This document shows, one piece after another, positions 50,925 to 57,670 of a stretch of DNA of 64,000 nucleotides; the stretch's first letter is position 1, and each line of letters starts with the position of its first letter. Source of the DNA: Rossellomorea sp. AcN35-11 (GTDB lineage: Bacteria > Bacillota > Bacilli > Bacillales > Bacillaceae_B); NCBI GenBank assembly GCA_030388825.1, contig CP128835.1:248001-312000 (forward strand). Reading direction: 5' to 3'. The position numbers and the translations under genes were made by a program. The notes under the pieces are model-generated. The model made no database searches. It saw only the letters and a program-made list of their open reading frames with translations, and had not been told where the DNA came from.

Positions 50925-52170
50925 TCACTCTGGAAGAGGGACAGGCTTCCCGGCTTCAACCAACACCTGATCCCGGCCCATCATAATGGAAAGAAGGATG
51001 GTCAGTATACCGGTTCCGATGAGGAGCCACTCGATGGCCACGATATCCGCCAAGGGCCCGAATATCAGCATGCCGATGGGCATCATCGACGTGGAGATCA
51101 TCCCCATGACCCCGAAGACCCTTCCTAAATAATTCTCTTCGATTTTCTCCTGGAGCAAGACCATGGTCGGGGTGTTGAAAATCGGCATGGCCACTCCGAA
51201 TATTGCCATGAAGACAAGGTAGAACCAAAACGCCGGAACGATGCCAAGGGCAAAGGTGCAGATCCCCATGATCAAGCTTGAGAACGTCATCGTGGCAATC
51301 TTATTGTGAAATCCTCCCCCAGGAAGCGATGATCCCACCACCTGCCATCATTCCGATGGAAAAGGCGATTTCAATGGCCGTCAGTCTCCATATATCATCG
51401 CCGAAGCTCCTGGCGACCTGCAGGGGAGTCAAAAAGGCCGCAGGTGCCATCAGAACAAAAAAGATGGCGAAGAACAGGAAGAACTTCTTCAGGAACCCAT
51501 GGCTGTTGACATAGGACAAGCCTTGCTTGAAGTCACTGAAGTAGCTTGTTGTTTGTTTGCCTGCTGCCTTCTCATGTACCGAGATGTTCAAGAAAGCCAG
51601 CAGGGTGATGATCGCGATGGCGGCGGTAATGACATCGATGAAGAAAATGATTTCAATGGACGCCATTCCGAGTAGAGCCGCACTGACAAGCGGGGAAACG
51701 AACATAATGACAGCCTGAATGCTTCCATTTGCCCCGTTCACCTTCGTCAGCTTCTCCTTCGGGACAATCTGCGGCAGAATCGCACCGACAGCAGGTGTCT
51801 GAACTCCGGCTCCAAGGGCCCGGATCGCTGCCATGACAAACAGCAGCCAGATTGAATCGTATCCCATTAAGAAGAGAATCGCGAGGACCAACGTAGAAGT
51901 CGCGATCAATCCATCCGATAACACAATCAGCAGCTTCCGGTTATACCGATCCGCCCAGACCCCCGCAACCGGTGACAACAGAAAGGTCGGGATAAATCCG
52001 CAAATAATAAACAAGGTCATCATCAAACCCGATTCCGTCGTTAACGTAATATGCCACATGATGGCATATTGCACCAGGGACGACCCGAACAGGGAGATGG
52101 TCTGACTGCTGAGAAAGAGAATGATATTTCTTAACCAATTTTCCTTATGGTCGTGATTGACTGCGTTCAT
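50925..52170 (-). pseudogene. MFS transporter (macrolide-efflux type), frameshifted
   Basis: About 414 residues when repaired. It shows 12 TM segments with SPVAGVWADRYNRKLLIVLSD (motif A variant) and ALGAGVQTPAVGAILPQIV, typical of the MFS_3/MdtG-like efflux group. The frame breaks at C5 51316-51320; with C4 it reads GIIASWGGFHNKIATMTF and goes on to 50925. ATG 52170 follows GAGGTGGTGG. Annotated as multidrug efflux by family only. Confidence 0.83.
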
Positions 52171-52222
52171 TTCCCACCACCTCATTTCCAATTATTTCGT
52201 CTGTTTAAGACGTATAGACAGG

Positions 52223-53653: not shown

Positions 53654-56063
53654 TTAAAACCCCGCCAATGCCTTCGCATATTCAAATGGAGTTGGAAGGA
53701 TATGGGGAAGGACTCTTTGTTCCCCTTCACTTCTGAATTGCTTGATTTCTGCTGCGTAATTAAGCTGGGGCTCCAGCACCCAGAACTTCCCTTCTTGATC
53801 GACTACAAGATCGAAGCATGCATCGCCAAGTTTATGTCCTTTGATCTCCATGATCTTGAGGATGCGGGTACAGATATAGGTCATCTCCTCGATTGTCTTT
53901 TTGGCTTCCTCTCTGCTCATTCCGTAGAATTGCTGAAGCGCCTGACCGCCGGGGATGATGTCCTGCCTTTTCTTCGAGTTGGCGATGATGCTTTCCTTAT
54001 GGCCCACCTTCGTTTCGATCCCGGAGAATCTCCATTGCTTCGTATAGTCCTTCTGGATGTAGAGGCGAAAGTCAATTTTGTTTCGTTCCTTATTGAATGA
54101 AGAGATTTCCTCCTGAACGATATAGTTCTTCCTTTTGACGAGCTGGGATTTAAGGATGGCGATGAACTGCTCCTTCGAGGTAATGTGTGTTTGGTTCCCT
54201 TCAATATCGGTCCACAGATAGCCCTCCTCTATCCGTTTCACGTGGAAAATGCCATTTCCCCCCGCCATGGATGCAGGCTTCAAATAGACGGCATCGCAAT
54301 GTTTCAGTGCTTTCAGGACACTATTCACATCAAGGTATTTCTTCGTCCTCGGCAGATGATTCTTGATTCCGGGCTGCATCTTCATCATCTTCCAAAAGGT
54401 GAGCTTATCGGTGTTCCCATAAGGATAATTGAAGATCCTGTCCCCGATATGCTTCTTAAGATACTGATATCTGGAGGCTCTCAGGGGAATGCGGTTGAAG
54501 ATGGAATCCGGGAAAGGGAACGTTCCCCATTTAAAGGATTGGGATGTGGGGTGGTAGTAGTATCCTGAAATCGTTTTTCGCTGCACATCAAGAGTATCAG
54601 GGAAGAAGAAATAGAGAAGTCCGTTTATCTTGTGATAATCAACAAACCTTAGGAGCTGCTGCTTGGGATCCTCCATATACCGGTTATAGACGATCATCCC
54701 GATTACGGGTCCCAGATGTAATCGATCCCCCTCCCAATAATAGTCATACGGCAGGGACGGAATGGAAACATCCTTTGATAATCTCTTCGGTATACGGACT
54801 TCCCCCCGTTTAAGCCCGTCATTCAAGACCACCTTGAGGATTTTCTTCAGCTGGCCGAACTGAAGGATCGCCTGTTCCTTTAACAGATCAAGGGATTCCA
54901 GCGTATCCGCACTCATCTCCATCGTATAGTCGGCAATCGAAGGATCGATATGAATGGAATAAAAATAGCGGTCGAGGAGGTACTGAACCGTTTTATTCAT
55001 ATTCATGGCGCTGGAGCCTTTCACAAGGATGACACTGTCCTTGTCCATGGTTTTCTTCAGCTCCCTGTGCATGTCATCTCTCGTTTTAAAGTGCATGACC
55101 TTCTGCGGGTCCATCCCTGCCTCAACGGCACCGTGAACAAAATGCTCGGCTGCCCGTCCGTATGTGAAAAGATGGTTCACTCCCACCTTTGCGGCATAGG
55201 CACCGACTTCTTTATGCCCTTTTTCGGCATGATCACCTAATTCAAGCATGCTCCCAAGGACGACAATCCGTTTCTTTCCTTTGCCTAATTCTTTTTGAAC
55301 ATCGAGGGCAGCGTTCACGGATTGGGGATTGGCATTCACCGTATCATCGATTAAAAGGGAGCCGTTGGCCAATTCGTGCATATTGAGGCGTTTGATGGGA
55401 ACCTCGTAAGCCGCGAGCCCTGCTTTGATTTCCTGTGCCGTAAACCCTGCTGTATGTGCGACTGCCCATGGCGAGGAGCGCATTATGGATATTGTGCAGG
55501 CCAAAGGAAGGCAGGAAGAAGTCTTCCACCGCTCCGTCAAGCTTCACCTTGAACTCCATCCCACCCTTCACATAGTGGATGTCGGTGGCACGATAATCCG
55601 CGTCCCGTTTCGTCCCGACTGTCATCAACCGGCCCCGGAAGGAACCCGTATCCAACAGCTCCGAATTCTCATCGTCCCCGTTCAGCACCAATAAACCGTC
55701 ACGCTTCATATATTTGATCAAAGCGGATTTATTTTGGGCGGTGGACTCAATGCTGTTGCCGAGATTCCCGTAGTGGGCCGTGCCGATATTCGTGATCACC
55801 GACATATTGGGCTGTATATGACTGCAGTGCCTCTCCCCGGCTCCGGGTTTTCCCATGCCAAGCTCAAGGACGATGGCATCAATCGTCGGATCGTACTTCT
55901 CGGCGATCTGCTTTGTATTGTTGGGAAGATTTTTATTTCCCGTATTCTTTAACACTTTCCATTTTTGCTCCAAAATGGATGAAAGTATTTCTCGTGTCGT
56001 TGTTTTTCCCGAGCTGCCCGTGATGGCAACCGTCGGGATTTCCAAAATTAAGGGATCGAGCAT
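53654..56063 (-). pseudogene. Mur ligase-like (MurF-type) / YheC-YheD ATP-grasp fusion protein, frameshifted
   Basis: About 802 residues when the extra G at 55465-55467 is removed. Residues about 1-330 are a MurF-like ligase: P-loop TGSSGKTTTRE, GLHNIHNALLAM, DDTVNANPQSVNAAL and VLGSMLELGDHAEKGH. The usual N-terminal UDP-MurNAc-peptide domain is missing. From about 340 to the end is a YheC/D ATP-grasp: VYLKPASMAGGNGIF, KIDFRLYIQKD, ACFDLVVDQEGKFWVLEPQLNY. Start ATG 56063, seven bases after GGAGGT. The domain pair recalls cyanophycin synthetase in the opposite order. Spore-related polyamide or tag synthesis is inferred. Confidence 0.8.
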
Positions 56064-56174
56064 TCTATTACCTCCAGCATGATACATGTTATTTTATCTC
56101 CTGCTTACATCCTTTTTCTCAGGCTGTGGTCAATCGGGGACGTTCACACAGGTGGCTGTGGAAGCATCCTTTGC

Positions 56175-56226
56175 AAAAAAAAAATCAAGCTCCAAGAGAG
56201 TCCTTCTTTTATCCCTCAAGTGCTTG
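56175..56226 (-). terminator. Terminator overlapping the racemase stop codon
   Basis: TCAAGC / GCTTGA outer stem with imperfect inner pairs, followed by a T10 run on the minus strand. It partly separates the racemase from the Mur/ATP-grasp gene. Confidence 0.6.
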
Positions 56227-56908
56227 ATGAATGGCAAACTTCGCGAATAGCAGCGTCGGGTCGATCAGCGTCATCTCTGTAGTGAAAAACCTGAACATAA
56301 GAGGAATTTCGGTGCAGCAGCCCATTACGAGAGAAGCTCCCCGATTCTCATAGGAATGTAAGATTTCGTGAAGCTGCGTCACTGCTCGGGCAGAGAGGTT
56401 TCCTTCCTTCACTGTATGAATCGTTTGATCCACCACCCATTGTTCATGCCTGGTTGGAACGATTGCCTCAAAGCCTGTGTCGAGAAAGGCCCTCTGATAA
56501 AGGCGGGAATCAATCGTATGCTGCGTTGCCAGCAGCAGGACCCTTTTGTCCTCGGCATCATGATATTGACGGGTGACTGCTTTCACGGTTTCAGTGATCA
56601 AGCTGTAAAAAGGGGACGGTCGTGGCACGTTGGATGTGATCGTACCAAATATGGGCCGTATGACACGGCATGATGATGAAATCGGCCCCTGCCTGTTCTA
56701 TGAGTCTTGCAGACCTAATGATTTCAGGTACTGGGTCCTGTCCTTCTTTCGGAACTAACATCCTGGGCGGGATCTTGGGATTATTGTAGATCAAGATTTT
56801 GATATGCTCCTGGTCTCTGGAAGCTTCTGTGTTTGCCACGATCTTCTGAAATAAATCCACTGTAGCAGCAGGTCCCATCCCCCCGAGTATTCCAATCGTT
56901 TTCTCCAT
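56209..56908 (-). pseudogene. Aspartate/glutamate racemase family protein, frameshifted
   Basis: About 232 residues when one A of the A5 run 56607-56611 is dropped (VPFYSLITETVKAV then continues). The catalytic pair is visible: the first Cys in IIMPCHTAHIW, the second in LVMGCCTEIPLM; the start MEKTIGILGGMGPAATVDLF is the Asp-racemase signature. Family members interconvert L- and D-Asp or Glu. It sits between three small protein genes and the ligase fusion. Whether it feeds D-amino acid to the ligase is inference. Confidence 0.85.
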
Positions 56909-56944
56909 TCTTGAATCGCTCCTACATTCAATGATGGGCCTGGA

Positions 56945-57163
56945 CTATAATTCTTGTAATCTCTTCCAGGCCTCTTCGAACTGTTCTGCGGTCAATTGCT
57001 TGGACGCTAACAGTGAATACAACATGGCAAAGGCTACGGGTTTGACATCCACGTCGATGGTAATATGAACGTCCACATCTGAATTTCCGCTGCCCGTGAT
57101 TGTCGATTGGGCTTTATAATCTGTAGAATCCTTTCTATAGGGTTTCGCCTGTTCTTCACTCAT
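56945..57163 (-). CDS. Small SGNS-motif protein 3 (spore-associated candidate)
   Basis: A 72-residue protein. The polar N-terminus is followed by TGSGNSDVDVHITIDVDVKP (alternating beta pattern) and a C-terminal helix FAMLYSLLASKQLTAEQFEE. The SGNS plus alternating Val/Ala core is shared with the two genes upstream. AAAGGCGG precedes the ATG. The pattern faintly recalls CotX/CotV spore-coat repeats; function unknown. Confidence 0.6.
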   Translation of the reverse strand: MSEEQAKPYRKDSTDYKAQSTITGSGNSDVDVHITIDVDVKPVAFAMLYSLLASKQLTAEQFEEAWKRLQEL

Positions 57164-57182
57164 CGATTACGAACCGCCTTTG

Positions 57183-57380
57183 TTAAAAATTTATTTCTTG
57201 CTCTTGTTTCTGATCCTGATCGGCTTCAGCTTTTACCTGTGATTCCAATTTCGCCTTTGAATTGGCGTACACATTGATACAGTTCTTCGAATTTCCACTG
57301 TTTTCAACAACAGCTGAATTCCTCCTAACCGGATCCTCATTGCTTTTCTTCGATTGAAGCTGACTATAATTCGTGTTCAT
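57183..57380 (-). CDS. Small SGNS-motif protein 2 (spore-associated candidate)
   Basis: A 65-residue hydrophilic protein: ENSGNSKNCINVYANSKAKL and an acidic/Gln tail EADQDQKQEQEINF. Start is the second ATG (57380), seven bases after AGGAGG; the first ATG (57386) abuts that site. Homologous to the neighbouring gene at 57403 in the SGNS-N-x-V-A core. Unknown function. Confidence 0.65.
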   Translation of the reverse strand: MNTNYSQLQSKKSNEDPVRRNSAVVENSGNSKNCINVYANSKAKLESQVKAEADQDQKQEQEINF

Positions 57381-57402
57381 ACACATTCCTCCTGATTCTT
57401 AA

Positions 57403-57609
57403 TTAACCTTCTTCTTCATTAATGAATTGCCTTTGTTCCTGTTCCTGCTCTGCATCAGCTTTGACAGCCGATTTCGTATTGGCATCTGCATGAGCCCAAA
57501 CATTCAGTTCATTTGTTGAATTTCCACTATCGATTACTTTTGCTATGTTTTCAGATTCCTTCTTGCCGTCAGACGGCTTTCTCACAGGTTGATCCCAACA
57601 ATTAGACAT
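57403..57609 (-). CDS. Small SGNS-motif protein 1 (spore-associated candidate)
   Basis: A 68-residue hydrophilic protein: IDSGNSTNELNVWAHADANT and acidic Gln/Glu tail DAEQEQEQRQFINEEEG. First gene of the cluster, behind a sigma-K-like promoter; GGGAGG seven bases before ATG. Strong similarity to protein 2. The Gln/Glu-rich tails might be sites for enzymatic amide modification; this is speculative. Confidence 0.65.
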   Translation of the reverse strand: MSNCWDQPVRKPSDGKKESENIAKVIDSGNSTNELNVWAHADANTKSAVKADAEQEQEQRQFINEEEG

Positions 57610-57641
57610 AACAATCCTCCCTTTGAATCAAGCTATATTGT

Positions 57642-57670
57642 TACTATATGCCGAGTGGTACAAACCGGTA
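57642..57670 (-). promoter_or_regulatory. Sigma-K-type promoter of the sporulation locus
   Basis: Minus strand TACC (57667-57670), 16-base spacer, and CATATAGTA (57642-57650), a full match to the sigma-K -10 CATAnnnTA. It is 33 bases upstream of the first small gene and implies late mother-cell expression. Confidence 0.6.

What the first reader, a model, noticed from the sequence alone, without database searches (positions are those of the whole stretch)
53654..57670. Sporulation locus pairing a Mur-ligase/ATP-grasp fusion with a racemase and small SGNS proteins
Three small homologous hydrophilic proteins, an Asp/Glu racemase and a fused MurF-type ligase plus YheC/D ATP-grasp enzyme lie in one direction behind a sigma-K-like promoter. 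The Mur module has no UDP-MurNAc domain, so it is unlikely to make peptidoglycan precursor. Mur-ligase plus ATP-grasp in one chain is the architecture of cyanophycin synthetase, but here the order is reversed. I infer a pathway that adds amino acids (possibly D-Asp/Glu) to a spore-surface protein or polymer, with the small Gln/Glu-tailed proteins as candidate acceptors. YheC/D and the sigma-K site are established or consensus-based; the chemistry is inference. A terminator between racemase and fusion weakens the single-operon idea.
Basis: partly seen in the sequence, partly recalled or inferred. Interest (0 to 1): 0.8.

Follow-up and report, generated by a model that had tools for sequence, protein, structure and literature searches.

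The report
Racemase-paired double ligase of spore formers
Some spore-forming bacteria carry a conserved gene pair, a racemase of the aspartate/cysteate family beside one protein that fuses two enzymes of peptide-ligase families, which together likely attach mirror-image acidic amino acids to something on the spore surface; the product is unknown and no function has been tested.

Summary
SGNS1-2-3, a racemase and a MurF-like/YheCD ATP-grasp fusion lie on one strand behind a sigma-K-type promoter. Racemase and fusion are both frame-broken here, but intact in another genome of the species. Pontibacillus halophilus has the same five genes in order. The intact ~800-aa fusion is one clade, found in 8 species; the racemase is its neighbour in 6 of 8, and within the genus the close racemase occurs only where the fusion does (3 of 3; 0 of 33 others). 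Eight of eight racemases tested pass NCBI's cysteate-racemase cut-off. The Mur half is MurF without its N-terminal substrate domain. The ATP-grasp half models closest to TTLL, LysX and RimK, which extend acidic protein tails; glutathione synthetase and Ddl nearly tie. A separate reverse-order fusion occurs in clusters with CotZ-type coat proteins. SGNS1/2 are not obligate: 6 of 8 fusion species lack them, and 21 of 23 genomes with relatives show no strong enzyme hit. Best reading: a spore-surface two-step peptide ligase fed by a dedicated D-acidic-amino-acid racemase. Chemistry and acceptor are inferred.

The parts
57642..57669 (-). sigma-K-type promoter-like site (AC-N17-CATATAGTA) ending 33 bases before the SGNS1 start
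   Evidence: strict pattern hit in window and L006; the pattern occurs upstream of 20 of 853 background ORFs
57403..57609 (-). SGNS1, 68 aa, Gln/Glu-rich tail
   Evidence: ORF; 53% identity to first SGNS protein of Pontibacillus L075; no Pfam family
57183..57386 (-). SGNS2, 67 aa, same family as SGNS1
   Evidence: ORF; alignment A2
56945..57163 (-). SGNS3, 72 aa, separate small family (PF27320)
   Evidence: ORF; 13 hits including near-identical copies; alignments A3, A4
56591..56908 (-). N-terminal part of amino-acid racemase (frame change follows)
   Evidence: PF01177 1.8e-23; intact relative L006:6666-7364 is 232 aa
56209..56628 (-). C-terminal part of the racemase in another frame
   Evidence: PF01177 6.9e-10
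55344..56087 (-). fusion, part 1: Mur ligase middle domain; starts at the ATP loop, no UDP-substrate domain
   Evidence: PF08245 6e-33; the two window pieces match the L006 fusion at 98.0% and 99.0%
53654..55540 (-). fusion, part 2 in another frame: Mur ligase C-terminal domain and YheC/D-type ATP-grasp
   Evidence: PF02875 2.5e-17 and PF14398 3.6e-48

Best explanation
A racemase of the aspartate/cysteate family and a MurF-like/ATP-grasp fusion are encoded side by side in 6 of 8 fusion-bearing species of spore formers, here behind a sigma-K-type promoter, and together they likely build or extend a short peptide carrying D-acidic residues on a spore-coat component. Shown: gene order, conservation, domain make-up, kept catalytic positions, and co-occurrence with spoIVA. 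Predicted: both halves fold as ligases. Inferred: the racemase makes a D-acidic amino acid (D-Asp, D-Glu or D-cysteate); each ligase half activates a carboxylate with ATP and joins an amino acid to it, one bond type per half as in cyanophycin synthetase; the acceptor is a protein or polymer tail and not a UDP-sugar, because the UDP-binding domain is gone. The SGNS proteins would be lineage-specific acceptors or co-deposited coat proteins in the window species, Pontibacillus and perhaps Metabacillus, not a general part.
Confidence: 0.45

Rival explanations
1. The fusion is a stand-alone polymerase that makes a free two-component polymer (a cyanophycin-like or poly-gamma-glutamate-like coat or capsule polymer) with a D-acidic residue, without a protein acceptor.
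Against: Order reversed; TIGR02068 only 57-60 bits against a cut-off of 850, PgsB at most 30 of 222.7. No such capsule or NlpC/P60 gene was recognised among the called neighbours of the fusion in L006, though those neighbours were not scanned with Pfam.
Confidence: 0.25
2. The pair makes a small D-amino-acid-containing dipeptide or amide (glutathione- or D-Ala-D-Ala-like metabolite) that is stored in or signals from the spore.
For: Glutathione synthetase and Ddl nearly tie with the tail ligases in the fold comparison; L-amino-acid ligases occur in sister clusters; cysteate-type racemase.
Against: Two fused ligases are more than a dipeptide needs; some sister clusters carry coat proteins.
Confidence: 0.15
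3. The SGNS proteins are the substrates: the ATP-grasp half extends their Gln/Glu-rich tails as RimK, TTLL and LysX/ArgX extend acidic tails.
For: Co-encoded and co-conserved in L006 and L075; tail motif VKA-x(3)-Q-x-Q-x-Q in 6 of 6 rows, which come from two species; top fold matches extend acidic protein tails. SGNS3 relatives lie on contigs with the same lengths as those of fusion hits, including two short ones of 11981 and 14514 bases.
Against: SGNS1/2 not found in 6 of 8 fusion species (SGNS3 was not searched genome-wide); 21 of 23 order genomes with SGNS1/2 relatives have no enzyme hit at E <= 1e-80; SGNS pairs away from the enzyme.
Confidence: 0.2
4. In this organism the locus is a decaying remnant.
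For: Racemase, fusion and neighbouring MFS gene are all in two frames.
Against: All intact in another genome of the same species; spoIVA is in two pieces in this same assembly, which fits assembly indels.
Confidence: 0.1

Closest known systems
YheC/YheD of Bacillus subtilis (Pfam PF14398)
   Same: The C-terminal half carries the domain over its cut-off; B. subtilis YheC/YheD are sporulation-controlled and YheD surrounds the spore (PMC517825, PMC7911427, passages read)
   Different: YheC/YheD are stand-alone (recalled) and have no Mur half; the window genome's own cluster of four YheCD genes is elsewhere and branches apart from the fusion
Cyanophycin synthetase CphA
   Different: Order reversed; far below family cut-offs
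MurF, D-Ala-D-Ala-adding peptidoglycan ligase
   Different: Lacks the first ~100 residues (UDP-MurNAc-peptide domain); fused to ATP-grasp; the species has its own full MurF
Cysteate racemase CuyB / aspartate racemase (1jfl)
   Same: 8 of 8 racemases tested exceed the NF052483 cut-off; nearest solved structure by sequence is an aspartate racemase, 172 bits
   Different: Context is ligases, not cysteate degradation; substrate untested
RimK, LysX/ArgX, TTLL tail-extending ATP-grasp ligases
   Different: 13-17% identity; glutathione synthetase and Ddl nearly tied; no acceptor shown

Membership tests
YheCD-type ATP-grasp (PF14398) | domain over curated cut-off | tested here: met
   164.5 bits against 26.8 in the window piece; 159-168 bits in 4 of 4 intact relatives
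Cyanophycin synthetase | ATP-grasp N-terminal to the Mur ligase | tested here: not met
   Mur 14-350, ATP-grasp 542-799 in P0001
Cyanophycin synthetase | TIGR02068 over cut-off | tested here: not met
   57.4-60.0 bits against 850 in three intact fusions
MurF | N-terminal UDP-MurNAc-peptide-binding domain | tested here: not met
   alignment of 6 fusions with the species' own MurF; model starts at about residue 102 of 4qf5
MurF | Mur catalytic residues (ATP loop, carbamylated-Lys position, H/N, R, D-x-x-N-A) | tested here: met
   alignment of 6 fusions with MurF and invariant columns of A1; residue roles recalled
MurF | TIGR01143 over cut-off | tested here: not met
   255.8-285.2 bits against 288.6 in three intact fusions
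PgsB/CapB poly-gamma-glutamate ligase | TIGR04012 over cut-off | tested here: not met
   30 bits against 222.7 in P0001, not listed for P0005 and P0041
Cysteate racemase CuyB | NF052483 over cut-off | tested here: met
   198-226 bits against 190 in 8 of 8 intact racemases; of 14 control genomes 10 have some hit and 1 a hit over the cut-off. The window's own broken halves do not reach it
Cysteate racemase CuyB | racemises cysteate | not testable with these tools
   needs enzyme assay
RimK/LysX/TTLL-type tail ligases | adds amino acids to an acidic protein tail | not testable with these tools
sigma-K regulon | -35 AC, 14-16 gap, gCATAnnnTA | tested here: met
   site in window and L006; spacing from PMC517825 passages, consensus letters recalled; expression not tested

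The most novel reading that the evidence does not exclude
Spore formers own a third Mur/ATP-grasp peptide-polymer system besides cyanophycin and poly-gamma-glutamate: a spore-coat ligase that writes D-acidic (D-Asp or D-cysteate) isopeptide chains onto acidic-tailed coat proteins, assembled twice in evolution by fusing the same two enzymes in opposite orders.
Probability: 0.2. Interest if true: 0.85.

Novelty: new variant of a known kind. Interest (0 to 1): 0.62.

Why it matters
YheC/YheD were placed in the sporulation regulon by 2004 (PMC517825), and a 2021 paper still calls YheD's function undetermined although it coats the spore (PMC7911427). The racemase pairing, the MurF-derived partner and the two opposite fusions say which substrates and partners to test first (D-acidic amino acids, two ligation steps). 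If right, it would add a non-ribosomal D-amino-acid modification to the spore surface.

Tried and rejected
Mur half as a peptidoglycan enzyme: rejected, N-terminal domain absent and the species has its own MurF. Terminator between racemase and fusion: not supported. SGNS proteins as universal acceptors: rejected. Fusion as an artefact of this assembly: rejected; 51 of the 120 listed database hits carry all three domains.

Sigma-K pattern before free-standing SGNS genes: found in 2 of 19 starts tried, one of them guessed, so no support. The background set of that call is ORFs of 100 aa or more in loci of 15 kb or more; it contains some operon genes and both L006 and L073. For each species I tested the gene I took to lead the operon; for G109 that was the racemase, although a 434-aa gene just upstream may belong to the operon.

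Some of the 23 SGNS1/2 genomes rest on weak or spurious hits, for example a 513-aa protein in G063 and a match with three stops in G295. All 21 without an enzyme hit bear handle numbers first issued, which is how I take them to have been searched there.

Literature: no paper on this fusion, its racemase pairing or the SGNS proteins appeared in those listings. I read only listings with abstract beginnings, and passages of PMC517825, PMC7911427, PMC11382572 and PMC11915815. One protein search with SGNS1 returned only the close relative.

Full report
What is in the window. On the minus strand, from 57669 down to 53654, lie a sigma-K-type promoter, three small ORFs (SGNS1, SGNS2, SGNS3), a racemase and a Mur-ligase/ATP-grasp gene. 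Racemase and fusion are each split over two frames. The same species has another genome (L006/L073, recorded as Bacillus sp. RO3; the genome G024 is 'same species') in which both are intact, 232 and 810 aa as listed from the first start codon; the database fusion is 802 aa. Of 19 L006 ORFs with a match, 3 are split in the window, and spoIVA is split elsewhere in the same assembly. The genus is probably Rossellomorea: the fusion of the same-genus genome G001 is 90% identical to that of R. oryzaecorticis. NCBI files strain RO3 under Bacillus.

Conservation. A protein search with the 628-aa piece gave 151 hits, 120 listed, of which 51 carry all three domains. Genome searches found intact fusions in G024 and G001 of 36 in the genus (plus the broken G000), G216 and G109 of 397 in the order, G497, G605 and G454 of 398 in the class, and G1003 of 299 in the phylum. 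That is 8 species, G000 and G024 counted as one. Four proteins are identical to named records: G024 (Bacillus sp. RO3), G216 (Pontibacillus halophilus), G497 (Caldalkalibacillus mannanilyticus), G605 (Brevibacillus humidisoli). In trees of 70 Mur and 63 YheCD domains the fusions form one clade (97/97 and 99/97). Six proteins with the reverse order, YheCD then Mur, lie elsewhere in both trees, together with one stand-alone Mur and seven stand-alone YheCD domains; one of them was checked against Pfam. I read this as two separate fusion events.

Racemase pairing. The racemase is the direct neighbour in 6 of 8 fusion species: L006/L073, L075, L076, L108, L109, L110. In L109 and L110 it follows the fusion, in the others it precedes it. 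It is not beside the fusion in L064 (G001) or L111 (G1003). The same racemase type also stands near stand-alone YheCD genes in L066, L077, L079 and L124. In the genus, only the three fusion genomes have the close form; 20 others have a relative of about 111 bits or less, and 13 have none at the cut-off. All eight racemases tested exceed the CuyB cut-off; L066 and L124 were not tested there. CuyB interconverts L- and D-cysteate (PMC11382572, passages). The nearest solved structure by sequence is an aspartate racemase. I therefore call the substrate acidic, not more.

Sporulation link. All 54 of the 398 class genomes with a profile hit at E <= 1e-110 also have spoIVA (lists compared by eye), against 266 of 398 overall; hypergeometric 5e-11, not corrected for kinship. 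Most of these 54 hits are stand-alone Mur relatives; 4 are fusion genomes, G000 included. All 15 selected genomes with hits have a spoIVA match, 14 over the cut-off; in G497, as in G000, it is in two pieces. The strict sigma-K pattern precedes 4 of 8 fusion operons (window species, G454, G001, G1003) against 20 of 853 background ORFs; binomial 2e-5. Sister clusters that combine Mur ligases, YheCD, L-amino-acid ligases and NlpC/P60 carry CotZ proteins over the Pfam cut-off in L065, L067, L068, L080, L081 and L125; L083 is just below. These seven were picked because they clustered as one family; L070-L072, L082, L126 and L127 showed no member. In B. subtilis, yheC and yheD are SpoIIID-stimulated members of the sigma-E regulon (PMC517825), and YheD forms a shell round the spore, function unknown (PMC7911427).

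SGNS proteins. SGNS1 and SGNS2 share N-x-A, SGNS and the tail motif VKA-x(3)-Q-x-Q-x-Q with their L006 and L075 relatives. Mostly 70-130-aa relatives, rich in D, N, S, Q and E, occur in 23 of 299 order genomes at E <= 0.01, a few of them weak or spurious. SGNS3-type genes were flagged in 12 of 18 such loci, and no Mur or YheCD gene was flagged among the printed neighbours. 21 of the 23 genomes are not among the enzyme hits at 1e-80. In fusion genomes, SGNS1/2 relatives were found only in G024 and G216 of the 8 species, and in none of three racemase-YheCD genomes. They are therefore not required. They look like coat-type proteins recruited to this operon in some Bacillaceae; that too is inference.

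Mechanism. Shown: anatomy, conservation, catalytic positions, co-occurrence with spoIVA. Inferred: a D-acidic amino acid is made by the racemase and joined to a carboxylate acceptor in two ATP-dependent steps on the forming spore. The acceptor and the polymer length are open, and rivals are given. I rate the general statement 'spore-associated double ligase fed by a dedicated acidic racemase' near 0.8 and the fuller mechanism 0.45.

Noticed in passing
L065, L067, L068, L069 (same-genus genomes); L080, L081, L082, L083, L125, L127: Clusters of Mur ligases with YheCD ATP-grasps, L-amino-acid ligases (LAL_C2) and NlpC/P60 enzymes, many with CotZ-type coat proteins, some with an M14 peptidase and a GNAT: apparently spore-coat peptide-ligase islands, perhaps more striking than the given locus.
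   Followed up: partly
L127:9757-11919 and homologues in L080, L081, L082, L083, L125: A 721-724-aa fusion in the opposite order (YheCD first, Mur second), apparently of independent origin.
   Followed up: yes
L114, L115, L116, L118, L120: Stand-alone Mur relatives beside PGA_cap (CapA-type) genes in five genomes.
   Followed up: partly
L151-L168: Free-standing SGNS1/2-type and SGNS3-type genes, often adjacent, in many Bacillaceae, rich in D/N/S/Q/E; role unknown.
   Followed up: partly
window 50925-52191: MFS transporter gene in two frames in the window, intact in L006; with split racemase, fusion and spoIVA this points to indel errors in the assembly.
   Followed up: partly
L071:5611-6954 and L082:13561-13911: Small related proteins (113-120 aa in L071, 116 aa in L082) beside YheCD/Mur clusters, no Pfam match for the L082 copy; possible substrates there.
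   Followed up: no
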